Positions 11,205 through 39,066 of a stretch of 64,000 bases of DNA are shown piece by piece. Source of the stretch: Microcella alkalica (GTDB lineage: Bacteria > Actinomycetota > Actinomycetes > Actinomycetales > Microbacteriaceae); assembly GCF_014137945.1 (NCBI RefSeq), contig NZ_JACGWX010000003.1, forward strand, positions 124,001 through 188,000, in the 5' to 3' direction. The notes under the pieces are model-generated. The model had not been told where the DNA came from, did not search any database, and saw only the letters and a list, made by a program, of their open reading frames with translations. A program made the translations under genes and the position numbers. Numbering within the stretch: the stretch's first letter is position 1; every line of letters starts with the position of its first letter.

Positions 11205-11792
11205 TCAGCCCGGGGCGAGCCGGCGGGCGTCAGCGCGGACGGGCGCACGCGAGGCGGGCGCTAGCGCGGCGAGCGCCGTGACGGTCTCGTCGACGATGCG
11301 GTCGATCGTCGGTGTGACGTCGATCGTCAGGCCGACCTCGTCATCCCCAAGCGGCTCGAGCGTCGCGAGCTGCGAGTCGAGCAGACTCGAGGGCATGAAG
11401 TGGTCGCTGCGTCCCGCCATGCGCGCCTCGAGCACGCCGCGGGGCGCGGTCAGGTGCACGAACACGGTGTCGGGGCTCCAGTGGCGCAGCACGAAGCGGT
11501 ACGCGCTCGTGAGAGCCGAGCAGGCCATGACGACCCCGTCTCCGGATGCTGCGCCCGCGGCGAGCGCCCGACCGACCCTGTCGAGCCACGGCCACCGGTC
11601 GACGTCGGTGAGAGGCACACCCGCCGTCATCTTGGCGACGTTCTCGTCCGGGTGCAGATCGTCGGCGTCACGGAACTCGAGGGCGAGTCGCTCAGCCAGA
11701 GCGCGGCCGACGCTCGTCTTGCCCGCGGCCGAGACGCCCATCACGACGATGACGGGGCGTCCCGGCCGGAGCGGTGCCGACGGAGTCGTCAC
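11205..11792 (-). CDS. Gluconokinase-family kinase (paralogue 2) in uronate locus
   Basis: A 195-residue GntK-type P-loop kinase with Walker [34 protein letters not shown] and the [16 protein letters not shown] element. The GTG start overlaps the manD stop by four bases, so translation is coupled. Its family phosphorylates gluconate, but the gene sits directly behind mannonate dehydratase, whose product is 2-keto-3-deoxygluconate, and no PfkB-type KDG kinase is in the window. It may phosphorylate KDG or a related aldonate; that is inference. It differs clearly from the kinase at 8594-9109 outside the motifs, so it is not a recent duplicate. Confidence 0.88.
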
Positions 11793-13021
11793 CAGTCGTG
11801 GACGGTGCCGTCGGCGAGGCGGTTGTAGGGGAGGTACGCCTGCACGTAGGGGTAGCTGCCGGCCTCGTCGACATCGAGCTCGACGCCGAGCCCGGGCTTG
11901 TCTCCCGGGTGGAGGAATCCGTCCTTCCAGGTGAAGGACTGCTGGAAGACCTGATCGGTCTTCGCGCCGTGCTTCATGTACTCCTGGATCCCGAAGTTGT
12001 GGATCGACAGGCCGAGGTGCATCGCGGCGGCCATGCCGACGGGTGAGATGTCCGTCGGCCCGTGCATGCCCGACTTGATCTGGTACTGCGACGCGTACTC
12101 CAGCACCTTCTTGAGGTGGGAGATGCCGCCCGTGTGCGTGACCGCGCTTCGCACGTAGTCGATGAGCTGCTCGCGGATGATCTGCTGGTAATCCCACACG
12201 GTGTTGAAAATCTCGCCGATCGCGAGGGGCGTGGTGGTGTGCTGTCGAACCAGTCGGAGCGCCTCTGGATTCTCGGCCGGCGTGCAGTCCTCGAGCCAGA
12301 ACAGGTCGTACGGCTCGAGCGACTTGCCGAGCTGCGCAGCCTGGATGGGCGTCATGCGGTGGTGCCCGTCGTGCAGCAGAGGCAGCTCCGGGCCGAACTC
12401 GTTGCGCACGGCCTCGAATACGGTCGGGAGGTGGCGCAGGTAGCTGCGAGTGTCCCAGTCCTCCTCCTTCGGCAGAGCGCCTCGCACGGCGGGCTCATGG
12501 TCGTAACGAACACCGACCGCGTGCGTTGCGTTGGACGCGATTCCGTAGATCGACTTCAGGCCGGGGACTCCCGTCTGGACCCGGATCGCTCGATAGCCCT
12601 GCTCCTGGTGGTCGCGCACGCTGTCGAACAGCTCAGAGATCGTCTTCCCCGACGCATGCCCGTAGGCGAGAAGCCCATTGCGGCTCGCGCCCCCGAGGAG
12701 TTGGTAGACGGGCAGCCCAGCGACCTTGCCCTTGATGTCCCAGAGCGCCATGTCCACTGCGGCGATAGCCGCCATTGTGACCGGCCCGCGGCGCCAGTAG
12801 GCGCTTCGGTAGAGGAACTGCCACGTGTCTTCGATCTTGGCGGGGTCGCGGTTGATCAGCAGAGGCACGATGTGCTCGCTGAGGTAGGCCACGACGGCGA
12901 GCTCACGGCCGTTGAGCGTGGCGTCGCCGAGCCCGGTCACGCCGTCGCTCGTCGTGATCTTGAGCGTCACGAAGTTCCGGTCAGGACTTGTGACGATGAC
13001 TTCTGCCTTGTCGATGATCAT
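11789..13021 (-). CDS. manD: D-mannonate dehydratase, enolase superfamily (ManD/RspA)
   Basis: A 410-residue Mg-dependent enzyme predicted to convert D-mannonate to 2-keto-3-deoxygluconate. Metal ligands expected for ManD are present: D218 with H220 in LLHDGHH, E244 in [11 protein letters not shown]270 in AIGEIFNT. Catalytic-site residues R147, Y159 and H320 (GMHGPTD) also match the family pattern. Some family members prefer gluconate, so specificity is inferred from the adjacent UxaC and UxuB. A LacI-type palindrome lies about 80 bases upstream, and it is co-transcribed with the downstream kinase. Confidence 0.93.
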
Positions 13022-13099
13022 GTGCGGTCTTTCATGGTCGGGCTGGAATCGGCGGGGTTCCGCCGGAGCGATGCGGTCAGTGAATCATGATCAGGCCGT

Positions 13100-13119
13100 T
13101 TTGGCAAGCGGTTGCCAAA
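13100..13119. promoter_or_regulatory. LacI-family operator in front of manD
   Basis: TTTGGCAAGCGGTTGCCAAA is a 20-base palindrome with one mismatched pair near the centre. It lies between the uxuB stop (13161) and the manD start (13021). The core TTGnCAAnCGnTTGCCAA is shared with sites at 22541, 22564 and 35845. The CG-centred dyad is typical of LacI/GalR regulators, and the only such gene here is at 16000-17073. Confidence 0.8.
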
Positions 13120-13160
13120 CGGGGCGCGTGCTGGCTCACGTCGTGCGCAGGGCTCCACCG

Positions 13161-14555
13161 TCAGCCGGAGACGGCCGCGCGTCGAGAAGCCTCGACGACG
13201 GCGAGCGCGGCGGAGTCGTCAGCGAGCTCGGGGTCGAGGAACCCGAGGAGAGCGCGCGACGAGTCGCGCGCGGCAGCGGCGGCGGCGACCTCCTCCTCAG
13301 CCGGGTCGGGCGGCAGCGTGTCGAGCGCGGCCGCATCCATCCACGCCGCGATCGCACTCGCCGCACCCTCGCCCGAGCGCCCGGCGGCGAGCTCGGCCCG
13401 CAGCACGGGAACAGCTCGCACGCGCAGCTTCATCGAGCCGTCGCGGCCGATCTGCGCGAGGCGGTGCTCGATGCGCGGGTTCTCGAAGCGCTCGAGCAGC
13501 GCGGCGCGATAGGCGGGCACGTCGAGGTCGGCGGGCAGGTGGGCCTCCGCCTCATCCCAGAACCGCTCGACGGATGCCCGGCACGCGGCATCGGCGATGG
13601 CCTCGTGCACCGTCTCGTGCCCGCGGGCCGGGCCGGCATAGGCCAGCAGGCTGTGGGCGCCGTTGAGTAGCCAGAGCTTGCGTCGCTCGAAGGGGCGGAT
13701 GTCGTCGACGATGCGGGCGCCCGCCTGCTCCCACGCCGGGCGACCGGAGGGGAAGCCGCCACTGAGCACCCAGTCGGAGAACGGCTCGGTGACGACGGGC
13801 GCGCGGTCGTCCCAGCCCGAGAGCTCGGCCACTGTGGCGATGTCGGCGTCGCGCGTCGCGGGCGTGATGCGGTCGACCGACGTCGATACGAAGCTCACCA
13901 CATCGGTGACATATCGCGTGAGATCGTCGCTCACGGCGTCGGCCATGTCGAGCAGCGCCTGGCGCACGAGCTCGCCGTTCGACGGCATGTTGTCGCACGG
14001 CACGATCGCGAGCCCGGGGCCTCCCGCACGGCGGCGCAGCTCGAGGCCGACGAGGATTCGTCCGAGGGCGGAGACGGGCACCGATCCAGCCGGGCGGGCA
14101 CCGCCAGCGACCCTGCGCGCGAGCACGAGGTCGGAGGCGATGACGGGGTCGGCGAGTTCGATTGTGCCGTCGCCGCCGAAACGGTAGCCGGCCTCCGTGA
14201 CTGTGAGCGTGACGATCGCGGTCGCGGGCGCGGCGATCGCGGACAGCACCTGGTCGGGCGTCGAGCCGTCCACGGCGCGCACGATGCTGCGCATGACCGA
14301 GACGGAGTCGCCGCCGGCGCCGCGGACGACGAGCGAGTACAGGCCGTCCTGCGCCGCGAGCGGGGCGGCCGCGCCAGCGCTTCGGCCGGTGAAGGCCGCG
14401 ATGCCCCACGCGCGCTCGACGTCGACTGCGTCGGTATAGGACGCCTGGTGCGCACGGTGGAAAGCGCCGAGGCCGAGGTGCACGATTCGCTCCGGGGCCG
14501 GGTCGGTCGCGACCCCGCTCGCGGCGAGAGCGCTGCGCGTGAGCGGAATGGTCAC
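13161..14555 (-). CDS. uxuB: Mannitol dehydrogenase family protein, probable fructuronate reductase UxuB
   Basis: A 464-residue long-chain polyol dehydrogenase expected to reduce D-fructuronate to D-mannonate with NADH. The N-terminal Rossmann segment contains HLGLGAFHRAHQA. The catalytic KxxxxNxxH motif is KLWLLNGAH, and IVPCDNMPSNG is also conserved. The family covers mannitol, tagaturonate and fructuronate enzymes. The assignment rests on the four-base overlap with uxaC upstream and on manD downstream. It is the last gene of the long operon; an operator for manD follows. Confidence 0.9.
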   Translation of the reverse strand: MTIPLTRSALAASGVATDPAPERIVHLGLGAFHRAHQASYTDAVDVERAWGIAAFTGRSAGAAAPLAAQDGLYSLVVRGAGGDSVSVMRSIVRAVDGSTPDQVLSAIAAPATAIVTLTVTEAGYRFGGDGTIELADPVIASDLVLARRVAGGARPAGSVPVSALGRILVGLELRRRAGGPGLAIVPCDNMPSNGELVRQALLDMADAVSDDLTRYVTDVVSFVSTSVDRITPATRDADIATVAELSGWDDRAPVVTEPFSDWVLSGGFPSGRPAWEQAGARIVDDIRPFERRKLWLLNGAHSLLAYAGPARGHETVHEAIADAACRASVERFWDEAEAHLPADLDVPAYRAALLERFENPRIEHRLAQIGRDGSMKLRVRAVPVLRAELAAGRSGEGAASAIAAWMDAAALDTLPPDPAEEEVAAAAAARDSSRALLGFLDPELADDSAALAVVEASRRAAVSG

Positions 14556-15991
14556 AGCTTGAACACCTCCCGGGGCTGGGCGTCGGTGATCTCCACGATG
14601 ATGCGCTCGGCGTCGGCCATCGTCAGGCGGCCCTCGATCACGAGGCGCGCGAGGAAGGCCGAGTCGACGCGCCGCGACATGTCGTGACGTGCGGGGATCG
14701 ACAGGAACGCACGGGTGTCGTCGATGAAGCCCGAGCCGCGCGAGAAGCCCGCCGTCTCGGTGACCGCAGCGCGCACCCGCAGGGCCGCGTCAGGGGCATC
14801 CAGGAACCACCACGGAGCGCCCACGTAGAGCGCCGGGTAGAAGCCCGCGAGCGGAGCCAGCTCGCGCGAGTACACGGTCTCGTCGATGCTGAAGGCGACG
14901 ATGTGCACGTCGGGGCGCAGGCCGATCTCATCGAGCAGTGGCCGCAGGTTCGCGGTGTACTCGACGGCGATCGGGATGTCGTGACCTGAGTCGGGGCCGA
15001 AGCGGTCGAAGGTCGCCGAGGAGTGGTTTCGGTGCACTCCGGGGTGGATCGTCATGACGAGGCCGTCGTCGGCGCTCATGCGGCCCATCTCGAGGAGCAT
15101 GGCTCCGCGGAAGAGGCGGGCGCCTTGCGCGTCCAGCCGACCGGCGAGAGCATCGCGGTGGAGGGCGGCGAACTCGTCGCGGTCGAGCGCGACGGTGAAG
15201 GGCTCGCGCACGCCGTGGTCGGCCGAGACGGCGCCGTTCGCGATGAAGTGGGCACGGCGCTCGCGCAGCGAGGCGAGGTAGCCCTGCGGGTCGTCGGCGC
15301 TGCGGCCCGTCGCGGCGGCGAGGCGCTCGAGGCGCTCGCGGAAGCCCGCGGCCTCGGGGTCGAGGTATGCGTCGGGCCGGAAGGTGGGCAGGATGCGCGC
15401 CGACACCGCCGGGTCGGTAGCGAGAGCGCGGTGCACCTCGAGGTCGTCGAGCGGGTCGTCCGTCGTCGCGAGCACCTCGATGCGGAACTGGTCGAGCAGA
15501 GCGCGCGGCCGGAAGTCGGCGTCGGCGATGCGTGAGGCGATGCGGTCGTAGAACGCGTCGGCCGACGCGGGCGACAACTCGTCGGTGAGCCCGAAGAGCG
15601 AGGCCCACTCGTGGCGGAGCCAGTAGCCCGAGGCGGTGCCCGCGAAGAGATGCCAGCGGTCGGCGAAGGCGATCCAGGCCGCGCGCGGGTCGGCGGGGCC
15701 GCCCGCTCCGACGCCGAAGAGCGCGAGGTCGGCGCCGTCGGCGTGCAGGAGGCGCGTGACGTAGTGGTCGAAGGTCAGGAACAGCGAGGTCGGGTCGGCG
15801 AACGCGGCATCATCGAGAAGGATGCGCGGGTCGACGTGACCGTGCGGCGAGATGATCGGCAGCTCGGCGACGCGCTCGTGCAGCGCGCGGGCGCGGTCGC
15901 GCGTGTCCGGGTCGGCGGGGAAGAGCCGGTCGGGGTCGAGGACCGTCAACCGATTGCCATCAGGGGCGTGAAGAGGGGACGTGTTCGTCAT
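14552..15991 (-). CDS. uxaC: Glucuronate isomerase
   Basis: A 479-residue amidohydrolase-fold isomerase converting D-glucuronate to D-fructuronate (also galacturonate to tagaturonate). The N-terminal metal motif is SPHGHVD near residue 50. Characteristic stretches include WLRHEWASLFG, EVLATTDDPLDDL, TFRPDAYLDPE and the C-terminal RHDMSRRVDSAFLARLV. Length is usual. The ATG at 15991 begins eight bases after the LacI stop. It overlaps uxuB by four bases. This is the entry enzyme of the hexuronate pathway and best defines the locus. Confidence 0.96.
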   Translation of the reverse strand: MTNTSPLHAPDGNRLTVLDPDRLFPADPDTRDRARALHERVAELPIISPHGHVDPRILLDDAAFADPTSLFLTFDHYVTRLLHADGADLALFGVGAGGPADPRAAWIAFADRWHLFAGTASGYWLRHEWASLFGLTDELSPASADAFYDRIASRIADADFRPRALLDQFRIEVLATTDDPLDDLEVHRALATDPAVSARILPTFRPDAYLDPEAAGFRERLERLAAATGRSADDPQGYLASLRERRAHFIANGAVSADHGVREPFTVALDRDEFAALHRDALAGRLDAQGARLFRGAMLLEMGRMSADDGLVMTIHPGVHRNHSSATFDRFGPDSGHDIPIAVEYTANLRPLLDEIGLRPDVHIVAFSIDETVYSRELAPLAGFYPALYVGAPWWFLDAPDAALRVRAAVTETAGFSRGSGFIDDTRAFLSIPARHDMSRRVDSAFLARLVIEGRLTMADAERIIVEITDAQPREVFKL

Positions 15992-15999
15992 GGGGAGGC

Positions 16000-17073
16000 C
16001 TAGTTCTGCGCGGCGAGCGTCGCGACGGAATCGCGCACGACGAGCTCGGTGGTGAGGGGCGTCTCGTCGAGGTCGGCGACGTCCTCGCCGAGGACGGTCA
16101 GCACGGCGTGCACGGCGCGGTGGCCGGCGTCGGCGAGCGGCATGCGGATGGTGGTGAGCGGCGGCGTCGTGAAGTCGCTGCCGAAGATGTCGTCGAAGCC
16201 GATGATGCTCAGATCGCCGGGGATCGACATGCCGCGCTTCTGAGCTTCGCGCAGCAGACCGATCGCCATGAGGTCGTTGTACGCGATGACGGCGGTCGCC
16301 TTGCTCGCGAGAACTTCCGGCAACGAGGCAGGGCCCCCCGCGAGGGTTGGGCTGGCCGGGCCCAGTTGAACGACTTCGATGCCCTCCCGATCGGCCGCGG
16401 CACCGATCGCCTCGGCGCGTCGCTGACCGATCCACGAGGTCTCGGGGCCGGCGAGGTAGGCGATGCGCCGGTGACCCGCCCGTGCGAGGTGCTCCACGGC
16501 CTGCCCGATGCCGATCGAGATGTCGGGCACGATGCAGTCGACGCCCTCGACGAATCGGTTGATGAGCACGAGCGGCTTCTGTGCGGCCAGGTCTTGGATC
16601 TGCGGATCGCCGAGCCGCGTCGTCGCGAGTACGAGGCCGTCGACGGACGGGAGCACGCGCTCGGCCGCGGCTGCCTCTCGCTCACCCGACTCCTGCGACT
16701 CGGCGATGATCAGCGTGTAGCCGAGCTGCGCCGCGGCCTTCTCGGCGCCGCGGATGATGCCGAAGAGCACGGGGTTCGTGATGTCGGCGACGATGAAGCC
16801 GAGCGTCATGGTGCGGCCGGTCGGAAGTGCCCGAGCGAACGGGTTCACGCGGTAGTTGAGCTCGTCGGCGGCTTCGCGAATGCGCTGCTCGGTCTTGATG
16901 TTGATGCGACCGGGCTGGTTGAGAGCGCGAGAGACAGTGGAGGGGTTCACGCCGGCGAGCTTGGCGATGTCGTAGATCGTCGCTGCGGGCGCGCGCGAGG
17001 CGCGGCGACGCGCTGGCGACCGCGCCGCGCTCTCCTCCGTGCTCACCGCGTTCCCTCTCGGATGATCGATCAT
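16000..17073 (-). CDS. LacI-family transcriptional regulator of the hexuronate regulon
   Basis: A 357-residue repressor. The helix-turn-helix TIYDIAKLAGVNPSTVSRAL is at residues 32-51, followed by the hinge (YRVNPFARAL) and a periplasmic-binding-protein-like effector domain (LGFIVADITNP to the C-terminus). The ATG at 17073 overlaps the upstream ATPase stop by four bases. A GTG nine codons later has a better ribosome site (GAGGGA) and may be the true start. Encoded inside the operon it probably controls, it should bind the TTGnCAAnCGnTTGCCAA sites. The effector is probably a uronate intermediate (inference). Confidence 0.93.
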   Translation of the reverse strand: MIDHPRGNAVSTEESAARSPARRRASRAPAATIYDIAKLAGVNPSTVSRALNQPGRINIKTEQRIREAADELNYRVNPFARALPTGRTMTLGFIVADITNPVLFGIIRGAEKAAAQLGYTLIIAESQESGEREAAAAERVLPSVDGLVLATTRLGDPQIQDLAAQKPLVLINRFVEGVDCIVPDISIGIGQAVEHLARAGHRRIAYLAGPETSWIGQRRAEAIGAAADREGIEVVQLGPASPTLAGGPASLPEVLASKATAVIAYNDLMAIGLLREAQKRGMSIPGDLSIIGFDDIFGSDFTTPPLTTIRMPLADAGHRAVHAVLTVLGEDVADLDETPLTTELVVRDSVATLAAQN

Positions 17074-17999
17074 CGAACCCGGTCTCCTACGCTAATGCCC
17101 TCGGCGCCGTCGTCAGGTGCAGCGACGACCGCGCCGACGATCGCACCGGCTTGCGCGTCCTGCTCTCGCTGCTCGGCGAGCAGTCGCAGCCGGTTCGCCC
17201 GGCGCTCCTCCTGCCGCACAGGGTCGGGCACGGGCGAGGCGAGCAGCAGGCGCTGCGTGTACGGGTGGTCGGGTGTGCGAGTGACGTGCTCGGCCGGGCC
17301 CTGCTCGACGATCTCACCGCGGTACATCACGGCCACGTCGTGGCTGATGTGCCGGACGACGTCGAGGTCGTGCGAGACGAACAGGTACGAGACCCCGGTG
17401 TCCTGCTGGATCTCGAGGAAGAGGTCGAGCACGCGCGCCTGCGTCGTGAGATCGAGCGCGCTGACGGGCTCGTCGCACACGATCAGTCGGGGCGAGAGTG
17501 CGAGGGCGCGCGCGATGGCCACGCGCTGGCGCTGACCGCCGCTGAACTCGCGCGGCAGGCGGTGCACGGCGTCCTGCGGCAGCCCTACGCGATCGAGAAG
17601 CTCGCGGATGCGCGCCTTCGCTTCGCGCGGAGCGACGCCCTGAACGGCCAAAGGCTCCGCGAGGATCTCGCCGACCTCGAGCGCCGGGTTGAGCGACGTG
17701 TACGGGTCCTGGAAGACGACCTGGATGTCTCGGCTCAGCGCCCGGCGCTGGCGACGCGAGGCGTGCGTGATGTCCTGCCCGTCGAACGTGATCGCGCCGC
17801 CCGTGACCGGAGCGAGACCGAGCATCGCGCGACCGAGGGTCGTCTTGCCCGAGCCCGACTCGCCTACGAGGCCGAGGGTCTTCCCCTGTTCGATCGCGAT
17901 CGACACGCCGTGGAGGGCGCGGAACGGCTTGGCGCGGAACCCCTTGCCGGGGTACTCGACGACGACATCGGTGGCGGTGAGAATCGGCGTCCCGTTCAT
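17070..17999 (-). CDS. Oligopeptide/oligosaccharide ABC transporter ATPase (OppF/DppF type)
   Basis: A 309-residue nucleotide-binding subunit of an Opp-family importer. Walker A is GESGSGKTTLG, the Q-loop VVFQDPYTSLNP, the signature FSGGQRQRVAIARAL, Walker B LIVCDEPVSALD and the H-loop LFVSHDL. The C-terminal region after PDHPYTQRLL is the Opp/Dpp extension. It pairs with the ATPase half of the fused protein at 17996-19792. Four-base overlaps on both sides show translational coupling. In this context sugar oligomers or glycosides are likelier cargo than peptides. Confidence 0.94.
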   Translation of the reverse strand: MNGTPILTATDVVVEYPGKGFRAKPFRALHGVSIAIEQGKTLGLVGESGSGKTTLGRAMLGLAPVTGGAITFDGQDITHASRRQRRALSRDIQVVFQDPYTSLNPALEVGEILAEPLAVQGVAPREAKARIRELLDRVGLPQDAVHRLPREFSGGQRQRVAIARALALSPRLIVCDEPVSALDLTTQARVLDLFLEIQQDTGVSYLFVSHDLDVVRHISHDVAVMYRGEIVEQGPAEHVTRTPDHPYTQRLLLASPVPDPVRQEERRANRLRLLAEQREQDAQAGAIVGAVVAAPDDGAEGISVGDRVR

Positions 18000-19792
18000 G
18001 CGGTGCCTCCTGCGGCGGCGTCGACGGTGAGCTTGGTCATCGGCTGCTTGTCCTCGAGCATCGAGGCCAGGAGCGTCTGCGTGTACGGGTGCTTGGGATG
18101 GCGGAGGATGTCGAGCACCTCACCCTCCTCGACGACGCGGCCGCTCTGCATCACGACGACGCGGTCGGCGAGGTCGGCGACGACGCCGAAGTTGTGCGTC
18201 ACGATGATCACGCCGACGCCGAGCTGACGCTGCATCGTTCGCAGCAGGTCGAGCACCTCGGCCTGCACCGTGACGTCGAGCGCCGTAGTGGGCTCGTCCG
18301 CGATCACGAGGTCGGGCTCGCAGCTGATCGCACCGGCGATGAGCACACGCTGCGCCATTCCGCCGGAGACCTCGTGCGGGTACGCGTCGAACGTGCGCTG
18401 CGGGTTCGGGATGCCGACCTTGGCGAGCAGCTCGAGCGCGCGGGCCCTCGCTTCCGCCTTCGAGATTCCGAGCACGACGGTCATCGGTCGCACGAGCTGC
18501 GAGCCGATCGTGAATGCGGGGTCGAGGTTGGACATCGGCTCCTGCGGGATGTACGAGATGCGACGCCCGCGCAGTGCCCCGAGGCGCTCGGCCGACACGG
18601 TATCGTCACCGGGGGCGACCGTGTACGTGCCGTCGAACTGGATGCTCCCCCCGACGATCCGCGCGGTGTCGGGCAGCAGGCCGAGGATCGAGAAGGCGGT
18701 CTGCGACTTGCCGGAGCCCGACTCGCCGACGATGCTCAGCACCTCGCCGCGGTCGATATGGAACGAGACGTCGTCGACGACCGTTTTGATCGAGCCGTCC
18801 GCCTGCGGGTAGCCGACCGCGAGGTGCGAGACCTTGAGCAGGTGCTGCTCGGTGCCAGCCTCGACGGCCGGGAGGGCAGCCGAGCGGGACGGCTTCTTCT
18901 CGCCTGCGGGGCGGCGCTTGGCCGTGATCTTCTGGCCGTCCTCGAGCGCGTCGCGGACAGCGTTGCCGAGCAGGACGAGCGAGGCGATCGTGAGCATGAT
19001 GGCGAGTGTCGGCCAGACCAGCAGCAGCGGGTTGAGATACACGTTCCGGAAGCCGTCGCTGAGCATGATTCCCCACGTCGCCTGGGCCGGGTCGCCCAGG
19101 CCGAGGAAATCAAGACCGGACTGGATGGCGATCGCCACGCCGGCGACGATCGACGTCTGGATGATGATCGGAGCACGGACGACCGACATGATGTGCCGGG
19201 CGATGATGCGCAGGTCGGAGAGGCCCGAGACGCGAGCGGCGTCGACGTAGAGCTCGTTGCGCACCGACTGCACGACCGTGCGCGTGAGGCGGAAGTAGCC
19301 GGGGCTCAGCAGGATGCCGAAGACGATCATGGCGAGCCAGACCGAGGGACCGAGAGCGGCACGCACCGAGAGCAGGACCATGATGCCGGGGAGGCTCAGG
19401 ATCATGTTCGCGAACCAGCTCGCGGTCGAGTCGAACCAGCCGCCGTAGTAGCCGGCGATGAGGCCGGTCGGGAGGCCGATGAGGATCGCCACGCTCGCGC
19501 ACAGGAGCGCCGAGGCGAGCGTCAGCTGGCCGCCGTAGAGCAGACGACTGAGTACGTCGCGACCGCCGCTGTCGGTACCGAGGATGTACTCGCCGCCGGG
19601 AGCGGCGAGCGTGTTCGTGATGTCGGAGAAGTTCTGGTCGTACGGCGCGAGCACCTGGGCGAAGGCGGCAGCCGCCCCGATGATCACGAGCGCCACGATG
19701 GCGGTGAGACCCAGCGGATTGCGCACGATGCGGCCGAAGACGGTGCTGCGGACGACGACGCCGGACTGACCGGCGGGAGTGGGCTCGGTCAT
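17996..19792 (-). CDS. Fused ABC transporter permease (OppC type) and ATPase (OppD type)
   Basis: A 598-residue single chain. Residues 1 to about 300 are a DppC/OppC permease: an N-terminal TM helix, the GTDSGGRDVLSRLLYGGQ entry motif, several TM helices and the EAA-type loop near VRNELYVDAARVSGLSD. After a basic/alanine linker, residues about 318-598 are a complete OppD ATPase: Walker A GESGSGKSQTAF, Q-loop YIPQEPMSNLDP, signature VSGGMAQRVLIAGAI, Walker B LVIADEPTTALD, and PKHPYTQTLLAS. These are usually separate genes. No stop or frameshift lies between, so I read it as a genuine fusion. Confidence 0.94.
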   Translation of the reverse strand: MTEPTPAGQSGVVVRSTVFGRIVRNPLGLTAIVALVIIGAAAAFAQVLAPYDQNFSDITNTLAAPGGEYILGTDSGGRDVLSRLLYGGQLTLASALLCASVAILIGLPTGLIAGYYGGWFDSTASWFANMILSLPGIMVLLSVRAALGPSVWLAMIVFGILLSPGYFRLTRTVVQSVRNELYVDAARVSGLSDLRIIARHIMSVVRAPIIIQTSIVAGVAIAIQSGLDFLGLGDPAQATWGIMLSDGFRNVYLNPLLLVWPTLAIMLTIASLVLLGNAVRDALEDGQKITAKRRPAGEKKPSRSAALPAVEAGTEQHLLKVSHLAVGYPQADGSIKTVVDDVSFHIDRGEVLSIVGESGSGKSQTAFSILGLLPDTARIVGGSIQFDGTYTVAPGDDTVSAERLGALRGRRISYIPQEPMSNLDPAFTIGSQLVRPMTVVLGISKAEARARALELLAKVGIPNPQRTFDAYPHEVSGGMAQRVLIAGAISCEPDLVIADEPTTALDVTVQAEVLDLLRTMQRQLGVGVIIVTHNFGVVADLADRVVVMQSGRVVEEGEVLDILRHPKHPYTQTLLASMLEDKQPMTKLTVDAAAGGTA

Positions 19793-22383: not shown

Positions 22384-22540
22384 TGTCGGTCAGCCTTTGC
22401 TGTGTGATGGGTCAGGGCGGATGCTACGGGGGTCGGTCCCCGGCCGGTGGTCGCGGCCACCGCGTTTCCCGGCCGGGAACCGCGCGTCACGGGAACGGTC
22501 CGCGATCGCTTGAAGTGACTGTAAGCCCGCAGTTCGCGAT

Positions 22541-22558
22541 TTGTCAACCGGTTGCCAA
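22541..22558. promoter_or_regulatory. LacI-family operator, SBP operon, site 1
   Basis: TTGTCAACCGGTTGCCAA lies 158 bases upstream of the binding-protein ATG. It matches the sites at 13100 and 35845 and is 23 bases centre-to-centre from site 2, about two helical turns. The pair would let one repressor dimer of dimers, or two dimers, bind one DNA face. Confidence 0.85.
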
Positions 22559-22563: not shown

Positions 22564-22581
22564 ATGACAACCGATTGCCAA
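22564..22581. promoter_or_regulatory. LacI-family operator, SBP operon, site 2
   Basis: ATGACAACCGATTGCCAA is the second copy of the same palindrome; its left half is less perfect. It is the farther of the pair from the binding-protein gene. The remaining bases up to the CoA-transferase stop at 22635 show no further element. Confidence 0.8.
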
Positions 22582-31483: not shown

Positions 31484-31519
31484 GGGGTCAGTCTGTCGGT
31501 CGACGGCGGAACGGTGCGA

Positions 31520-32941
<1,422 letters not shown>

Positions 32942-33070: not shown

Positions 33071-33086
33071 CCCCGATCGTTCGGGG
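33071..33086 (-). terminator. Possible terminator after the isomerase/GH3 operon
   Basis: CCCCGA (33071-33076) and TCGGGG (33081-33086) can form a six-base stem with a TCGT loop about 60 bases beyond the isomerase stop on the minus strand. The rest of the 204-base gap to sdaA contains an eight-base hairpin (CGACGCCC/GGGCGTCG) and no gene. Confidence 0.35.
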
Positions 33087-33145
33087 GCGCACGGCCCCGC
33101 GCAGGTGCGCACCGGGGCGCATCGCCGGGCGGCCGCGAGTTGTGA

Positions 33146-34003
33146 TTAGAACAGCTCGGCGAACCCCATAGCGACGAGGTTATCGTACGAGGTCTGCAGG
33201 CACTCGAGCGGTGTGCGACCGTACTGGTCGTCCTGCTCGACGAGCAGGTAGCGAGCGCCGATCTGGATGCTCGTCTCGACGATCGACGGGAAGTCGAGGT
33301 TGCCCTCGCCGACCTCGGCGAACTGCACGACGCTGTTGAACGCGGTCATGAAGGCCGGGAAGTCGCCCGCGGCGAGCGCCTCGAACGCCGTCGGCGGCAG
33401 CGCGGCGATGCGGTAGTCCTTGAGGTGCACCATGGCGACACGGTCGCTGTACTTTAGCAGGTCGCGCACCGGGTCGTGGCCACCGCGCTGCACCCAGTGC
33501 ACGTCGATCTCGAGGCCCATGAGCGGCGCCCGGTCGGCGATGATGTCGAGCAGGTAGCGCCCGTCGTACTTCATGTACTCGATGTGGTGGTTGTGGTAGT
33601 AGAGCGAGATGCCGTGCTCGGCGAGCTTCGCGGCGGCCTCGTTGCTCGCGTCGCAGAAGGCGACCACCTTGTCGAGCGAGGCCATCGCGTCGAAGGGCAG
33701 CATGCCGATGCGCACCATGTCGGTGCCGAGCGCCTTCGCGTCGGCGACGATCTTGTCGAGGTCGTTCTGCAGCGAGTCGCCGCCCGTCGGGCCGGGGGTG
33801 AGCGAGGCCGAGATCGCGGCGATCTCGATGCCGAGCTCGTCGCGCGCGCGGGCCAGCTCGGCGACGTTCTCGGCGGTCATCGGCACCTGCGAGATCTCGA
33901 CCGCGCGGTAGCCGATCTCGCGCACTTTCTTCAGCGTCTCGAAGGGTCCATTCGCGGCGAACTCGTCCTTGAGCATCATTGCCTGCACGCCGATTCTGGC
34001 CAT
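33146..34003 (-). CDS. Sugar phosphate isomerase/epimerase family TIM-barrel protein (A)
   Basis: A 285-residue xylose-isomerase-like TIM barrel (IolE/YcjR/AP-endonuclease-2 fold). Metal-site type residues appear in LYYHNHHIEYMKYDG, MGLEIDVHWVQRGGHDP and MVHLKDYR. Members include epimerases, dehydratases and lyases acting on 3-keto sugars, so the exact reaction is open. I chose the ATG at 34003, which has a CAGG ribosome site; another ATG lies two codons upstream. It follows the GH3 gene by about 75 bases on the same strand and shares its operator. Confidence 0.85.
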   Translation of the reverse strand: MARIGVQAMMLKDEFAANGPFETLKKVREIGYRAVEISQVPMTAENVAELARARDELGIEIAAISASLTPGPTGGDSLQNDLDKIVADAKALGTDMVRIGMLPFDAMASLDKVVAFCDASNEAAAKLAEHGISLYYHNHHIEYMKYDGRYLLDIIADRAPLMGLEIDVHWVQRGGHDPVRDLLKYSDRVAMVHLKDYRIAALPPTAFEALAAGDFPAFMTAFNSVVQFAEVGEGNLDFPSIVETSIQIGARYLLVEQDDQYGRTPLECLQTSYDNLVAMGFAELF

Positions 34004-34079
34004 GGTCATCCTGCTTTCGTAGATGGGGTGGAGAGGGGCCGAGCGGCGCCGTGGTGTCGCGCCGATCGAGGTGCGAGGG

Positions 34080-35816
34080 CTACAGGTTCGTGCCGAAGGT
34101 GCCGCACCACACGTTGTCGTTGAACGTGCCGAGGAACGGCGAGGCGCCCGTGATCTTCTGCACGGCCGCGTGAATGGACTCGCGGCTCGGGTTGTGGGCG
34201 TGCACGACGGTCTTCACCATCGGCACGTCGATGAGGTGGTTGGGCTGGTTGAGCGAGATGAAGACGGTCGGCACCTCGGTCACGTACCAGGGGATCTCGG
34301 CCGCCATCGGCGTCGACCATTTGATGCGGATGCTCGCCTCCTGCGCGAAGCCCGCGACGTTCGCCACGATGACCGCGGCGTCGAACCGCTCGGCGTAGTG
34401 CCCGTTGGCCTCGTCGGCGAGCACGGTGTGGAAGTACACGCCCTCCTCGCCCTCGGCGATGCGCTGCTTCGCGTTCTTGAACACGTGCACCTCGAAGCCG
34501 GCCCTCTCAAGCTCGTCCTGCGCGATCGCGAGGTAGCCGTTCGGGTCGACACCGGTGAAGTCGGCATCGCCCGAGACGCCGTAGAGGCGAATGCGCTTGT
34601 GCGTCTCGGGGCGCAGCGGCAGAGTGCTCTGCGTGTCCTTCACGAGCGTGACGGTCTTGTCGGCGATCTCGGCGGCGACGGCGTGGTGCGCCTCGCTGCC
34701 GATGACGGTGAGCGCCTCGGGCGGCGGCACGAGCTCGTGCCGCGGAGTACGGTGCAGGCCGAGCGAGGCCTTGAGGCCGAGGATGCGCTCGAGCGCCTCC
34801 TGCAGGCGCTCCTCGGTGATGACACCAGAGCGGTAGCCCTCGAGCATGTACTGGAAGTCCTCGTCGGCGTTGCGGAAGAACAGGAACATGTCGCAGCCGG
34901 CGGCGATCGCCGCGGGCACGAGGTCGCGGCGCTTCATCGCCTGCGTCATGCCGACCATCATCGACGCGTCGGTGAGGATCACGCCGTTGAAGCCGAGCTC
35001 GCCGCGCAGCAGGTCCTGCAGCAGCTCGGGAGCGAGGCTCGCGGGCAGAATCTGCTCATCGCGAATGCCCGGGCGGAACCTGCGCGACAGTGCCGGAGCC
35101 CCGATGTGCCCGACCATGATGGACTGCACGCCGTGGCCGATCATCTCGCGGAACACGCGCCCGAACGACGCCTCCCACTCCTCCACCGTCTGCGTGTTGT
35201 AGGTCATGACGACGTGCTGGTCGCGCTCATCGACGCCGTCGCCGGGGAAGTGCTTGATCGCCGCGACGGTGTTCGACTCGCTGAGGCCGTCGAAGTACTC
35301 CTTGGCCCGCTCGATGACGACGTCGGGGGCGCTGCCGAAAGCTCGGGTGCTGATGACCGTGTTGCGCCAGTTGTAGTGGATATCCACGATCGGCGCGAAG
35401 GCCCAGTTGCAGCCCATCGCGGCGGTCTCGACACCGGCGACGCGCCCCATCGCGCGAGCGACGCTCTTATCGGGGGTCGAGCCGGCCTGCAGATGCGTGC
35501 TCACGAGCGTGCCGTCGTCGGCGCTGCCGAAACCGCCCATCTCGGGGTTCGAGGCGACGAGCAGCGGCACCTTCGAGCGGTTCTGCGCGTACCGGATGTG
35601 CTCCTGCACGGTCGCCGAATCGGCGCCCATGTAGCGGATGCCCCCCACGTGATACCCGTCGAGGATCCCGTCGAGGTACTCCGGGTCGAAGCGGGTGTTG
35701 AGGTTGATGAAGAGCTGGCCGATCTTCTCCTCGATCGTGAGGGATTCGATCGTCTCGTGCACCCAGCGAACGCCTTCGTCGTCGAGATGGAAGGGCTGCG
35801 CCGCAAGGTTCACCAT
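34080..35816 (-). CDS. Glycoside hydrolase family 3 protein, NagZ-like catalytic dyad
   Basis: A 578-residue GH3 enzyme with no signal peptide, so probably cytosolic. The (beta/alpha)8 domain carries KHFPGDG followed by DxH (ERDQH) near residues 187-200, the His/Asp acid-base dyad of NagZ-type members. The nucleophile aspartate is in FNGVILTDASMM. A second alpha/beta domain follows from about residue 370. The dyad suggests beta-N-acetylglucosaminidase, glycoside phosphorylase or related activity. Since it shares the uronate operator, the natural substrate may be an imported disaccharide. A LacI-type operator lies 29 bases upstream of the ATG. Confidence 0.9.
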   Translation of the reverse strand: MVNLAAQPFHLDDEGVRWVHETIESLTIEEKIGQLFINLNTRFDPEYLDGILDGYHVGGIRYMGADSATVQEHIRYAQNRSKVPLLVASNPEMGGFGSADDGTLVSTHLQAGSTPDKSVARAMGRVAGVETAAMGCNWAFAPIVDIHYNWRNTVISTRAFGSAPDVVIERAKEYFDGLSESNTVAAIKHFPGDGVDERDQHVVMTYNTQTVEEWEASFGRVFREMIGHGVQSIMVGHIGAPALSRRFRPGIRDEQILPASLAPELLQDLLRGELGFNGVILTDASMMVGMTQAMKRRDLVPAAIAAGCDMFLFFRNADEDFQYMLEGYRSGVITEERLQEALERILGLKASLGLHRTPRHELVPPPEALTVIGSEAHHAVAAEIADKTVTLVKDTQSTLPLRPETHKRIRLYGVSGDADFTGVDPNGYLAIAQDELERAGFEVHVFKNAKQRIAEGEEGVYFHTVLADEANGHYAERFDAAVIVANVAGFAQEASIRIKWSTPMAAEIPWYVTEVPTVFISLNQPNHLIDVPMVKTVVHAHNPSRESIHAAVQKITGASPFLGTFNDNVWCGTFGTNL

Positions 35817-35844
35817 GCGACCATGTCACACCTTTTCGCCCGTC

Positions 35845-35862
35845 TTGTCAATCGGTTGCCAA
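35845..35862. promoter_or_regulatory. LacI-family operator between divergent GH3 and isomerase genes
   Basis: TTGTCAATCGGTTGCCAA differs from the site at 22541 by one base. It sits in the 113-base divergent intergenic region and could repress both the GH3-isomerase A operon and the isomerase B-Gfo1-Gfo2 operon. No LacI gene is nearby; the closest is at 16000-17073. Confidence 0.85.
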
Positions 35863-35929
35863 GCGGCTATCGTGAAGCCGCCGACGCGAGCGCGCTCGGC
35901 CGCTCCCAACGACGCGATTCGACGAAGGC

Positions 35930-36787
35930 GTGACCCACGTGGCCTCTCAGCACCCTGTCTCCTGGACCCTCTCGGGCTTCGGCGACGAGATCGATCCGGA
36001 CCCGGCCGTGCAGGTCGCCGTGCTCAAGGCGCTCGGCGCCCAGCACATCGAAGTGCGCAGCGCGTGGGGCACGAACGTCGTCGACCTCGATAACGACCAA
36101 CTCGGGAAGCTGCGCGCGCTCCTCGTCGACCAGCAGATGAGTGTCTCGGCCGTTGCCTCCCCCATCGGCAAGGTCGACGTCACGCTCGACGCCGAGCTCG
36201 AGGTCGCCCGCCTGCGCCGCATAATCCGCGTCGCCGACGTGCTGCAGGCGCCGTACATCCGCATCTTCTCGTTCTTCCGGGGCGAGGGCGTCGCAGTCGA
36301 GAGCATCCGTGATGACGTCATGGTGCGCATGCGCCTGCTCGCCGAGGAGGCCGAGAAGGCCGGCGTCGTGCTCGTGCACGAGAACGAGAAGGGCGTCTAC
36401 GGCGACGTGCCCGAGCGCGTGCTCGACATCGTCGAGTCGGTCGGCTCGAGCGCCCTGCGCCTCGCGTGGGACAACGCGAACTTCGTGCAGGTCGGCGTGC
36501 GCCCCTTCGATGAGGGATACGCGATGCTGCGCCCGCACCTGGAGTACCTGCAGGTGAAAGACGCCGTCGCCGCGACCGGTGCAGTCGTGCCCGCGGGCCA
36601 CGGCGACGGCCAGCTGCTCGAGACCCTCACGGCCCTGCGCGACGACGGATACACGGGCTTCGCCTCGCTCGAGCCGCACCTCGCGAGCGCCCACGAACTC
36701 GGCGGCTTCTCGGGCCCGACCGCCTTCGGCGAGGCCGCTCGCGCGTTCGCCGACCTGCTGCGCGAGCTCGGCGTCGACACCCGATGA
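35930..36787 (+). CDS. Sugar phosphate isomerase/epimerase family TIM-barrel protein (B)
   Basis: A 285-residue xylose-isomerase-like TIM barrel, only distantly similar to protein A. It has the metal-site type motifs VLVHENEKGVYGD (Glu on strand 5), LRLAWDNANFVQVG, and LEYLQVKDAV. The GTG at 35930 is assumed; a GTG three codons later fits the ribosome site (GAAGG) better. It overlaps the following Gfo/Idh/MocA gene by four bases. Likely roles are epimerisation, or elimination on a 3-keto sugar made by the oxidoreductases. Confidence 0.85.
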   Translation: MTHVASQHPVSWTLSGFGDEIDPDPAVQVAVLKALGAQHIEVRSAWGTNVVDLDNDQLGKLRALLVDQQMSVSAVASPIGKVDVTLDAELEVARLRRIIRVADVLQAPYIRIFSFFRGEGVAVESIRDDVMVRMRLLAEEAEKAGVVLVHENEKGVYGDVPERVLDIVESVGSSALRLAWDNANFVQVGVRPFDEGYAMLRPHLEYLQVKDAVAATGAVVPAGHGDGQLLETLTALRDDGYTGFASLEPHLASAHELGGFSGPTAFGEAARAFADLLRELGVDTR

Positions 36788-37854
36788 GCTGCTTGACCGC
36801 GGCGTCCGGGGAGACGGGTGCGCGCCGCCCGCTCCGCGTCGCGGTCATCGGCTGCGGCGACATCTCGGCGCTGCACTTCGACGCGCTCACCGGCCTCGAC
36901 GGCGTCGCGCTCGTCGCCGTGTGCGACACCGACCCCGGGCGCCTCGCGGCCACGGTCGCCGAGCAGGGAGTGCCCGGGTTCGCCTCGGTCGCCGAGCTGC
37001 TCGACGCGGCATCGACGGACGCGATGCCGCTCGACGCGGTGCACGTCACGACTCCGCACCAGGAGCACGCGAGCGTCGCGATCGCGGCGCTCGAGCGGGG
37101 CATCCACGTCCTGCTCGAGAAGCCGCTGGCGCATTCGAGGGCGGATGCTGCGCTCCTGCTCGCGGCCGCCGAGGCCAGCACCGCCACCCTCGGGGTGTGC
37201 TTCCAGAACCGGTACAACACGCCCGTGCAGGCTGCGAAGGCCATCCTCGACTCGGGCGAGCTCGGCGCGATCCGCGGCATCGCGGCGACCGTGCTCTGGC
37301 ACCGCGCGCCCGGCTACTACCGCGACCGCCCGTGGCGCGGGCAGTGGGCGACGGGCGGCGGCGGGCTGCTCATGAACCAGGCGATCCACACGCTCGACCT
37401 CGTGCAGTGGTTCGGCGGGCCGGTCGTTCAGGCTCAGGGCCACGCGACCACGCGCGCGCTCGCCGACGTCATCGAGGTGGAGGACACCGCCGAGGTCGCG
37501 CTCGTGCACGAGAACGGTGCGCGCAGCGTGCTCTACGCGACGCTCGCCCACTCGACGAACCTGCCCGTGACGATCGACGTCGAGCTCGAGCGCGGCTCGC
37601 TCAGCATCCGCGGTGCGCTCACCGTGACGCGCGCCGACGGCTCGACGGAGGTCGTCGAGGAGCGGGGCGCCGCCGAGGGCGCGCGCTCGTACTGGGGCGT
37701 GTCGCACGAGCTGCTCATCGCCGACTTCTATCGCGGCCTCGAGTCGAGCATCCCCTTCTGGATCGACGGCCGTGAGGCGCTGACGAGCCTCGAGATCATC
37801 CAGAAGGTCTACGACCAGACCTACCCGGAGCGCGGCGCGCTCCCCTCGCGCTGA
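36784..37854 (+). CDS. Gfo/Idh/MocA family oxidoreductase 1
   Basis: A 356-residue NAD(P)-dependent sugar oxidoreductase. The Rossmann motif is VAVIGCGDISALH near residue 20. EKPLAHS carries the conserved EKP motif, and the C-terminal domain has GGGGLLMNQAIHTLDLVQWFGG with the catalytic-type histidine. It overlaps isomerase B by four bases and precedes a second, different member by 45 bases. Such pairs with TIM-barrel proteins oxidise sugar C-2, C-3 or inositol hydroxyls. Confidence 0.9.
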   Translation: MSCLTAASGETGARRPLRVAVIGCGDISALHFDALTGLDGVALVAVCDTDPGRLAATVAEQGVPGFASVAELLDAASTDAMPLDAVHVTTPHQEHASVAIAALERGIHVLLEKPLAHSRADAALLLAAAEASTATLGVCFQNRYNTPVQAAKAILDSGELGAIRGIAATVLWHRAPGYYRDRPWRGQWATGGGGLLMNQAIHTLDLVQWFGGPVVQAQGHATTRALADVIEVEDTAEVALVHENGARSVLYATLAHSTNLPVTIDVELERGSLSIRGALTVTRADGSTEVVEERGAAEGARSYWGVSHELLIADFYRGLESSIPFWIDGREALTSLEIIQKVYDQTYPERGALPSR

Positions 37855-37899
37855 CCCATCCGCTGACACCACCACCGGCAATCTGAAGGAACAGGACAC

Positions 37900-39066
37900 A
37901 TGGCAGAGACAGTTCGACTCGGCATCATCGGCCTCGGCGCCCAGGGCGGCATGTACGCCAAGTTCATCGCGGACGGCCTCGTGCCGAGCATGACCGTCGC
38001 GGCGATCGCCGACACCGACGAGGCCGTGCGCACGAAGGCCGCGGGCCTCTACCCCGGGGCGGCGATCTTCGACGACTACATCGCGATGCTCTCCAGCGGC
38101 ACCGTCGACGCGATCATCACGTGCGTGCCGCACTTCCTGCACCCCGAGATGGCGATCGAGGCGCTCAACCGCGACATCCACGTGCTCGTCGAGAAGCCGG
38201 CCGGCGTCTACACGAAGCAGGTCTCCGAGCTGAATCGCGTCGCCGCGAGCAAGCCCGAGCTGACCTTCGGCATCATGTTCAACCAGCGCAACAACCCGCT
38301 CTACATCCGCCTGAAGGAGATCGTCGACGCCGGCGAGATCGGCGAGATCCGCCGCTCGAACTGGATCATCACCAACTGGTGGCGCCCGCAGGGCTACTAC
38401 GACCAGAGCGCGTGGCGTGCGACGTGGGGCGGCGAGGGCGGCGGCGTGCTCGTCAACCAGGCTCCGCATCAGCTCGACCTGTGGCAGTGGATATGCGGCG
38501 TGCCGCAGTCGGTCTACTCGAAGGTCGCCTACGGCTTCCGCCGCGACATCGCCGTCGAGGACGAGGTGACCGCGGTCGCCGACTACGGCAACGGCGTCAC
38601 GGGCGTGTTCGTCACGGCGACGCACGACATCGTGGGCACCGACCGCTTCGAGATCCTCGGCGACCAGGGCAAGATCGTCGTCGAGAACAGCAAGACGGCG
38701 ACGGTCACGCGCCTGAAGAAGCCCGAGCGCGAGCTCAGCGACTCGATGACCATGGACGACGTCATGAAGCTCTTCATGGGCCAGCTCAACGCCGCCGACC
38801 TCTACGAGACCGAGGTCATCGAGTTCGACTCCCCATGGGGCCTGCAGCACTCGGGCGTGCTCGAGAACTTCGCGCAGAACATCCTCACCGGCACGCCGCT
38901 CCTCGCCCCCGGCTCCGACGGAATGAAGGGCGTCCGCCTCGCCAACGCCATCCACCTGTCGAGCTGGACGGGCGCCGAGGTCTCGCTCGACTTCGACGAG
39001 GACGAATTCCTGGGGATGCTCAACGAGCGCATCCGCGGCGAGGGCAGGTTCGCCGAGCGCGCGTAG
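37900..39066 (+). CDS. Gfo/Idh/MocA family oxidoreductase 2
   Basis: A 388-residue member with Rossmann motif LGIIGLGAQGGMYAKF, the EKPAGVYTK motif and GEGGGVLVNQAPHQLDLWQWICG containing the catalytic-type histidine. It is longer than neighbour 1 and clearly a different subfamily. The ribosome site is AAGGAACAGG. It is the last gene of the operon; a nine-base GC stem followed by TTT ends it. It probably acts on a glycoside or sugar acid, with isomerases A and B as partners (inference). Confidence 0.9.
   Translation: MAETVRLGIIGLGAQGGMYAKFIADGLVPSMTVAAIADTDEAVRTKAAGLYPGAAIFDDYIAMLSSGTVDAIITCVPHFLHPEMAIEALNRDIHVLVEKPAGVYTKQVSELNRVAASKPELTFGIMFNQRNNPLYIRLKEIVDAGEIGEIRRSNWIITNWWRPQGYYDQSAWRATWGGEGGGVLVNQAPHQLDLWQWICGVPQSVYSKVAYGFRRDIAVEDEVTAVADYGNGVTGVFVTATHDIVGTDRFEILGDQGKIVVENSKTATVTRLKKPERELSDSMTMDDVMKLFMGQLNAADLYETEVIEFDSPWGLQHSGVLENFAQNILTGTPLLAPGSDGMKGVRLANAIHLSSWTGAEVSLDFDEDEFLGMLNERIRGEGRFAERA

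What the first reader, a model, noticed from the sequence alone, without database searches (positions are those of the whole stretch)
11205..39066. One LacI regulator appears to tie two separated sugar loci into a single uronate/glycoside regulon
The same CG-centred palindrome (TTGnCAAnCGnTTGCCAA) is seen at 13100 (manD-gntK2), 22541 and 22564 (importer-LacI-uxaC-uxuB operon) and 35845 (between divergent GH3-isomerase A and isomerase B-Gfo1-Gfo2). Only one LacI gene (16000-17073) is in the window. The GH3 and oxidoreductase genes are therefore likely part of hexuronate use although about 10 kb of unrelated genes (CoA-transferase to sdaA) lie between. The combination of Opp-type importer, cytosolic NagZ-like GH3, two TIM-barrel isomerases, two Gfo/Idh/MocA enzymes and UxaC-UxuB-ManD is not a standard described set.
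Basis: partly seen in the sequence, partly recalled or inferred. Interest (0 to 1): 0.82.

Follow-up and report, generated by a model that had tools for sequence, protein, structure and literature searches.

The report
LacI regulon for oxidative glucuronide breakdown
An actinobacterium appears to use one repressor to switch on, together, an importer, a four-enzyme oxidise-and-eliminate system that probably frees glucuronic acid from its conjugates, and the ordinary pathway that then consumes the glucuronic acid.

Summary
The palindrome lies at 13101, 22541, 22564 and 35845; at up to two mismatches these are the only four places in the 2.74-Mb assembly.

The regulon inference is supported. In many relatives the two loci are one cluster: 39 of 80 fetched neighbourhoods carry isomerase A, isomerase B, both Gfo enzymes, uxaC, uxuB and this LacI. 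The motif occurs 141 times in those loci against 0 for the reversed pattern, in 47 of 48 loci with the LacI and 4 of 32 without.

Gfo2 closely matches a solved glucuronide-3-dehydrogenase. Isomerase A keeps the two key histidines of the beta-eliminase AtOGE. Gfo1 resembles a uronic-acid 3-dehydrogenase. In relatives the motif also precedes a glucuronide symporter. The 33-39 kb genes therefore most likely cleave glucuronides by C3 oxidation, elimination, hydration and reduction, passing glucuronate to UxaC-UxuB-ManD.

"Not a described set" is only partly right: similar four-enzyme sets are published, for example for levoglucosan. I did not find this uronide version under one LacI in my searches. 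DNA binding, substrate, the hydratase step and the steps after KDG are unproven.

The parts
16000..17073 (-). lacI: LacI-family regulator, proposed repressor of all four operators
   Evidence: PF00356 and PF13377; recognition residues N16-P17-S18 (LacI numbering, recalled) found in none of the other 12 LacI proteins of the genome
13101..13118 (.). operator 1, upstream of manD-gntK
   Evidence: exact match
22541..22558 (.). operator 2a, upstream of oppA; contains the -35-like TTGACA
   Evidence: exact match; promoter-like TTGACA-18-TACAGT
22564..22581 (.). operator 2b, upstream of oppA
   Evidence: 1 mismatch
35845..35862 (.). operator 3, between divergent GH3-isoA and isoB-gfo1-gfo2
   Evidence: exact match
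15943..15960 (.). degraded operator-like site inside the 5' end of uxaC
   Evidence: 3 mismatches, not above noise on its own; 44 sites with at most 1 mismatch lie just before uxaC in relatives
22518..22547 (-). putative oppA promoter, -35 inside operator 2a
   Evidence: 10 of 12 consensus matches; shuffles mean 0.1
35845..35873 (+). putative isoB promoter TTGTCA-17-TATCGT, -35 inside operator 3
   Evidence: 9 of 12 consensus matches; shuffles mean 0.0
20824..22383 (-). oppA: family 5 solute-binding protein of the importer
   Evidence: SBP_bac_5 E 3.1e-70
19789..20730 (-). oppB permease
   Evidence: BPD_transp_1
17996..19792 (-). oppCD: fused permease and ATPase
   Evidence: BPD_transp_1 and ABC_tran in one ORF
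17070..17999 (-). oppF ATPase
   Evidence: ABC_tran, oligo_HPY
14552..15991 (-). uxaC glucuronate isomerase (start ATG 15991 or a TTG further in)
   Evidence: NF002794 515.6 bits, cut-off 387; start region read
13161..14555 (-). uxuB-like fructuronate reductase
   Evidence: Mannitol_dh; best model fructuronate reductase NF011611, 237.8 bits, below its cut-off 603
11789..13021 (-). manD mannonate dehydratase
   Evidence: NF043051 688.9 bits, cut-off 550
11205..11789 (-). gntK-type gluconokinase
   Evidence: TIGR01313 164.6 bits, cut-off 113.75; exact start not determined
37900..39066 (+). gfo2: proposed glucuronide 3-dehydrogenase (step 1, oxidation)
   Evidence: 8tdi P2B11 glucuronide-3-dehydrogenase E 8.8e-138, residues 3-387
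33146..34009 (-). isoA: proposed 3-keto-glucuronide beta-eliminase (step 2)
   Evidence: best match 8bvk AtOGE E 2.1e-19 over residues 77-202; AtOGE H134 and H189 correspond to H141 and H195, invariant in all 26 aligned sequences
35930..36787 (+). isoB: proposed hydratase of the keto-glycal (step 3)
   Evidence: xylose-isomerase-like TIM barrel, AF2 pLDDT 91.9; AtHYD 8ro4 only at rank 36 of many similar fold matches, 14% identity; role assigned by elimination
36784..37854 (+). gfo1: proposed 3-keto-glucuronate reductase (step 4)
   Evidence: best sequence and fold match WlbA, UDP-GlcNAcA dehydrogenase (its C3 regiochemistry recalled)
34080..35816 (-). GH3 of the BglX beta-glucoside phosphorylase type
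   Evidence: 5vqd E 8.6e-114 over residues 4-572

Best explanation
One LacI-type repressor (16000-17073) binds 18-bp CG-centred palindromes that overlap promoters of the units oppA-...-lacI-uxaC-uxuB, manD-gntK, and the divergent GH3-isoA / isoB-gfo1-gfo2. When a glucuronide or a derived uronate binds the repressor, all units are expressed. The Opp-type importer takes up glucuronides. Gfo2 oxidises the sugar at C3. IsoA eliminates the aglycone. IsoB hydrates the resulting keto-glycal. Gfo1 reduces 3-keto-glucuronate to glucuronate and recycles NADH. UxaC, UxuB and ManD then convert glucuronate to 2-keto-3-deoxygluconate (KDG). Shown here: the sites, their rarity in the genome, their conservation with the LacI and the cluster, and the close relationship of Gfo2 to a glucuronide-3-dehydrogenase. 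Inferred: binding and derepression, the order isoA then isoB, the role of Gfo1, the imported substrate.
For: Four sites with up to 2 mismatches in 2.74 Mb, all here. 141 sites with at most 1 mismatch in 80 relatives' loci, chosen by Gfo2 and not by the motif, against 0 of the reversed control; 47 of 48 loci with the LacI (49% identity or more) and 4 of 32 without. Flanks of the sites are only 33-45% identical between loci, so the sites are not merely unchanged shared sequence. A -10-like hexamer follows the half-site nearest the gene: best at 16-18 bp scores 3.2-3.8 of 6 against 2.1-2.3 in shuffles for three gene groups; the window has two promoter-like pairs using an operator half. 59 of 80 gfo2 loci also carry uxaC or uxuB. 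Gfo2 to 8tdi E 8.8e-138. IsoA keeps the AtOGE histidines. Gfo1 to WlbA. In relatives 16 of the 26 sites not assigned to cluster genes precede a GPH symporter; its L042 member passes the glucuronide transporter cut-off (627.7 against 528 bits).
Against: No binding, expression or enzyme data. The 80 loci are the closest of at least 567 relatives and many are Arthrobacter, so counts are not independent. The reversed control keeps base composition but not dinucleotides. In the own genome that control gave 2 places at up to 2 mismatches. Many Arthrobacter-type clusters carry a second LacI (about 41-48% identical) beside isoB, which could share or take over sites there. In relatives' oppA sites the perfect TTGACA is in the far half (21 of 27) though the -10 fits the near half, and in the window isoB pair it is the far half that fits. 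IsoB's match to AtHYD is no better than to many epimerases. UxuB is below its model's cut-off. No PF01081 aldolase was found in the genome, so the end of the route is unknown. One GH2 gene elsewhere has beta-glucuronidase as best model, far below cut-off, so the new route need not be the only one. Six of 20 genomes with a close LacI have no exact site; three of those have 1-mismatch sites, three I did not read.
Confidence: 0.8

Rival explanations
1. The regulon is real, but its substrate is not simple glucuronides: the four enzymes and GH3 serve other uronides or glycosides (for example aldobiuronic acids, plant glycosides), with UxaC-UxuB-ManD handling the uronate part.
For: Opp-type importers take larger solutes (general knowledge); GH3 is closest to a beta-glucoside phosphorylase and occurs in 37 of 80 loci, with 6 shared GH3/isoB sites.
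Against: Gfo2's very close match is named glucuronide-3-dehydrogenase; relatives place a glucuronide symporter behind the same motif; Gfo1 resembles a uronic-acid enzyme.
Confidence: 0.35
2. Two regulators, not one: the 33-39 kb site is read by another LacI of this genome with a similar operator.
For: 13 LacI genes in the genome; Arthrobacter-type relatives have a second LacI beside isoB.
Against: No other LacI here has N-P-S recognition residues or a site with fewer than 4 mismatches in its 3-kb locus, and three have other palindromes 85-90 bp upstream of the HTH. In L032, L034, L035, L036 and L040 a site lies before isoB and the window-type LacI is the only LacI detected in the locus; L030 has a further 32% match.
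Confidence: 0.07
3. The sites are a by-product of strong -35 boxes or a global regulator, with no tie to uronates.
For: The half-site contains TTGNCA.
Against: Only four places in the genome at up to 2 mismatches, all at these genes; in relatives 115 of 141 sites lie near the start of a cluster gene.
Confidence: 0.03

Closest known systems
P2B11 glucuronide-3-dehydrogenase (PDB 8tdi). I recall it from the Withers group's work on non-hydrolytic glycan breakdown; that paper was not seen, only three papers holding a phrase of its title in a search listing
   Same: Gfo2 matches over residues 3-387 (E 8.8e-138); same proposed first step
   Different: Here joined to an Opp importer, a LacI regulon and UxaC-UxuB-ManD in actinobacteria; no activity shown
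Levoglucosan pathway LgdA-LgdB1-LgdB2-LgdC of Bacillus smithii (PMC7676230; abstract and two sections read)
   Same: Two Gfo/Idh/MocA-type oxidoreductases and two sugar-phosphate-isomerase-like proteins; a LacI gene and ABC transporter genes beside them
   Different: Levoglucosan dehydrogenase model not met by either Gfo (51.1 and 71.1 bits, cut-off 650); no hexuronate genes in the cluster described
Agrobacterium tumefaciens O-glycoside operon GlycDH-AtOGE-AtHYD-Gfo (PMC10628242; passages read)
   Same: IsoA aligns with AtOGE including His134 and His189; same four-step logic
   Different: Different first dehydrogenase; product glucose, not glucuronate; isoB not clearly AtHYD
Hexuronate (Ashwell-type) pathway UxaC-UxuB-mannonate dehydratase (recalled)
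   Same: UxaC and ManD meet curated models
   Different: LacI-type control with this operator; fed by a 3-keto route rather than only free uronate
BglX GH3 beta-glucoside phosphorylase (PDB 5vqd)
   Same: GH3 matches over residues 4-572
   Different: Substrate and phosphorolysis untested here

Membership tests
Four-enzyme 3-keto-glycoside pathway (oxidation, elimination, hydration, reduction) | C3 dehydrogenase | tested here: met
   By sequence only: Gfo2 to 8tdi E 8.8e-138
Four-enzyme 3-keto-glycoside pathway (oxidation, elimination, hydration, reduction) | Eliminase with the metal and base histidines of AtOGE | tested here: met
   H141 and H195 of isoA correspond to H134 and H189; invariant in 26 aligned sequences
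Four-enzyme 3-keto-glycoside pathway (oxidation, elimination, hydration, reduction) | Hydratase | tested here: inconclusive
   isoB fold resembles AtHYD (TM 0.72 by query, 14% identity, rank 36) but equally many epimerases
Four-enzyme 3-keto-glycoside pathway (oxidation, elimination, hydration, reduction) | Second Gfo as 3-keto-sugar reductase | tested here: inconclusive
   Gfo1 is in the family, best match WlbA; direction and substrate unknown
Levoglucosan pathway (Lgd) | LgdA levoglucosan dehydrogenase | tested here: not met
   NF052479: gfo2 51.1 and gfo1 71.1 bits, cut-off 650
LacI-family local repressor | LacI HTH plus sugar-binding domain | tested here: met
   PF00356, PF13377
LacI-family local repressor | CG-centred palindrome at the promoters of its targets, conserved with the regulator | tested here: met
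LacI-family local repressor | Effector-controlled DNA binding | not testable with these tools
   needs gel shift or footprint
Hexuronate pathway | UxaC and mannonate dehydratase | tested here: met
   NF002794 515.6 over 387; NF043051 688.9 over 550
Hexuronate pathway | Fructuronate reductase UxuB | tested here: inconclusive
   Best model fructuronate reductase, 237.8 bits, cut-off 603
Hexuronate pathway | KDPG aldolase of the PF01081 type in the genome | tested here: not met
   PF01081: no match in own genome, 8 of 14 control genomes ring
NagZ beta-N-acetylhexosaminidase | Score over the curated NagZ model | tested here: not met
   NF003740 118.6 bits, cut-off 207

The most novel reading that the evidence does not exclude
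Micrococcales carry a dedicated, widely conserved uronide regulon in which conjugated glucuronic acid is freed by redox-elimination chemistry instead of beta-glucuronidase, with import, cleavage and hexuronate catabolism under one LacI operator code; GH3 phosphorylase and glucuronide symporter are alternative modules of the same regulon.
Probability: 0.55. Interest if true: 0.62.

Novelty: new variant of a known kind. Interest (0 to 1): 0.52.

Why it matters
It gives a concrete physiological setting for the recently described oxidise-eliminate-hydrate-reduce route: glucuronides, a specific importer, a specific repressor and a downstream pathway, in dozens of mostly actinobacterial genomes. It also makes a sharp, cheap test possible, because the operator predicts which genes belong to the route in each genome. 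Glucuronide cleavage matters for plant matter turnover and for the fate of drug and steroid conjugates (general knowledge).

Tried and rejected
Levoglucosan pathway as the identity: rejected because neither Gfo meets the levoglucosan dehydrogenase model. NagZ as identity of GH3: rejected. Extending the regulon with sites at 3 mismatches: rejected as noise (17 places against 25 control). Exact sites in G024 and G057 lie beside other LacI genes (29% and 32% matches) with no uxaC, uxuB or Gfo2 match in the stretch read (L136, L137); I treat them as another regulator's. The exact site of G106 lies between isoB and a 45% LacI followed by uxaC (L138), so it fits a uronate cluster though it counts among the 3 of 130. 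One exact site in G002 (L131) lies about 95 bp before an aldose 1-epimerase-type gene away from the cluster; unexplained. G028, G050 and G072 have a close LacI and no exact site; I did not read their loci. The G066, G001 and G071 loci have sites with 1 mismatch. The high identity of the 18-bp sites themselves is not used as evidence, since the sites were chosen by that pattern. Papers: PMC7676230 abstract, genomic section and discussion; PMC10628242 passages; PMC10066097 passages; other papers only as search listings. Searches for a prior report of this regulon; none listed one, but the library lacks most subscription journals.
Full report
Observation. With up to 2 mismatches TTGNCAANCGNTTGNCAA occurs at four places in the whole assembly, and all four are those in the window (reversed control 2 places). 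Exact sites are 3 against 0 in the control (row G000). With 3 mismatches the search is noise (17 against 25). The genome has 13 LacI HTH matches, one of them in the window.

Genes. Searches give an Opp-type importer (oppA, oppB, fused oppCD, oppF), LacI, UxaC, UxuB-like, ManD and a GntK-type kinase; then CoA-transferase to serine dehydratase (about 22.6-32.9 kb, with no evidence here tying them to the rest); then isoA and GH3 on the minus strand and isoB, gfo1, gfo2 on the plus strand. Against solved structures, Gfo2 is very close to 8tdi, named P2B11 glucuronide-3-dehydrogenase (E 8.8e-138). GH3 is close to BglX phosphorylase 5vqd (E 8.6e-114). IsoA best matches 8bvk (E 2.1e-19, residues 77-202), which PMC10628242 identifies as AtOGE, an O-glycoside beta-eliminase (passages read). 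His134 and His189, whose loss abolishes AtOGE activity, fall on H141 and H195 of isoA, invariant in 26 aligned sequences. Gfo1's best sequence and fold matches are WlbA, which uses UDP-GlcNAcA. IsoB is a confident TIM barrel (pLDDT 91.9) with many fold matches of similar strength, AtHYD (8ro4) at rank 36; its hydratase role is by elimination.

Comparative test. A scan with Gfo2 found at least 567 relatives; the best 80 loci (up to 10-kb flanks, some cut by contig ends) were kept. By tblastn with the window's proteins, 59 of 80 also carry uxaC or uxuB; 51 carry isoA, isoB, gfo1 and gfo2; 39 carry these plus uxaC, uxuB and the LacI; 30 also oppA; 23 also GH3 (thresholds in that script). Thus the window's two loci are one cluster in many relatives. 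The motif with at most 1 mismatch occurs 141 times in the 80 loci (1.58 Mb), the reversed pattern 0 times. It is in 47 of 48 loci with a LacI of 49% identity or more and in 4 of 32 without. Of the 141 sites, 115 lie from 60 bp inside to 350 bp before the projected start of a cluster gene: uxaC 44, isoB 38, oppA 27, others 6 (shared GH3/isoB and lacI/isoB gaps counted under isoB). Of the other 26, 16 precede a GPH symporter; the L042 symporter meets the curated glucuronide transporter model (627.7 bits over 528). Four of the remaining 10 are cut by the locus end; the other six (L034, L037, L056 twice, L071, L076) lie 1.9-3.7 kb before manD with a gene I did not identify between. The 40-bp flanks of isoB, uxaC and oppA sites are only 33-45% identical between loci, so the sites stand out from diverged sequence; their own 89-97% identity is largely built in by the pattern used to find them. 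These loci are related to each other, so the counts are not independent events.

Family-wide test. In 150 genomes of the family, 17 have an exact site and the reversed control has 1 site in one genome. Gfo2 relatives at E 1e-80 or better occur in 12, of which 9 have an exact site. LacI matches of 340 bits or more, a cut I chose after seeing the list, occur in 20; 14 of these 20 have an exact site against 3 of the other 130. Some genomes with the LacI but no Gfo2 (L125, L126, L128-L129, L140) have sites before uxaC, opp genes or isoB, so the uronate genes look like the core and the 3-keto dehydrogenase a frequent addition. Two same-genus genomes have no LacI match, no Gfo2 match at these cut-offs and no exact site.

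Mechanism. In relatives the operator half nearest the gene sits where a -35 box would be, with a -10-like hexamer mostly 17-18 bp on: mean 3.8, 3.3 and 3.2 of 6 for isoB, uxaC and oppA against 2.1-2.3 in shuffled flanks; the far half shows no such excess. Against this, the perfect TTGACA lies in the near half in 44 of 44 uxaC sites but in the far half in 21 of 27 oppA sites. The window shows TTGACA-18-TACAGT before oppA and TTGTCA-17-TATCGT before isoB, each using an operator half-site; for isoB in the window it is the far half that fits. A repressor there would block RNA polymerase. This is inference from sequence.

Window-specific detail. Many relatives have a site between lacI and uxaC. Here that stretch reads as the first codons of uxaC and the site has 3 mismatches, so uxaC-uxuB probably depend on the oppA promoter (inference).

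Other LacI proteins. None of the 12 others has N-P-S at the recognition positions; their 3-kb loci have no site closer than 4 mismatches, and three show other palindromes 85-90 bp upstream of the HTH.

Limits. No KDPG aldolase of PF01081 is in the genome; two DHDPS-family genes are, one of them below the dapA cut-off, so KDG use is open. A GH2 gene lies elsewhere; its best model is beta-glucuronidase but far below the cut-off (109.2 against 544).

Placing. Four-enzyme sets with two oxidoreductases and two TIM-barrel proteins are known for levoglucosan (PMC7676230; sections read, which also show a LacI gene and ABC transporter beside the set) and O-glycosides (PMC10628242, passages). This is a uronide version tied to hexuronate catabolism. 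I found no report of this regulon, in a library that lacks most subscription journals. Hence: new variant of a known kind, moderate interest.

Noticed in passing
many of L037-L076, upstream of isoB: Many Arthrobacter-type clusters have a second LacI (about 41-48% identical to the window's) divergent from isoB, with operators in the shared gap and a different recognition segment (mostly A-A-S).
   Followed up: partly
L050, L073, L075, L081: Firmicutes records (Desemzia, Alkalibacterium, Carnobacterium; L050, L073 and L081 measured at 35-43% GC) carry Gfo2 75-79% identical to the window's, with isoA but without the motif at up to 1 mismatch; possibly gene transfer.
   Followed up: no
L052: A record titled Sporosarcina beigongshangi has an Arthrobacter-type cluster at 64% GC; transfer or a mislabelled or contaminated assembly.
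   Followed up: no
L056:15534-15562, L057:15336-15364, L065:15399-15427: After uxuB a second motif copy overlaps the first, shifted by 11 bp; in L057 and L065 a GPH symporter follows.
   Followed up: no
L131:7948-7965: An exact operator-like site in G002 lies before an aldose 1-epimerase-type gene away from the cluster; possible extra regulon member.
   Followed up: partly
own genome C13:4177-5061 (L144): A second DHDPS-family gene scoring below the dapA cut-off; candidate KDG aldolase since no PF01081 aldolase was found.
   Followed up: no
window 17996-19792: An OppC-type permease and an OppD-type ATPase are fused in one 598-residue protein.
   Followed up: no
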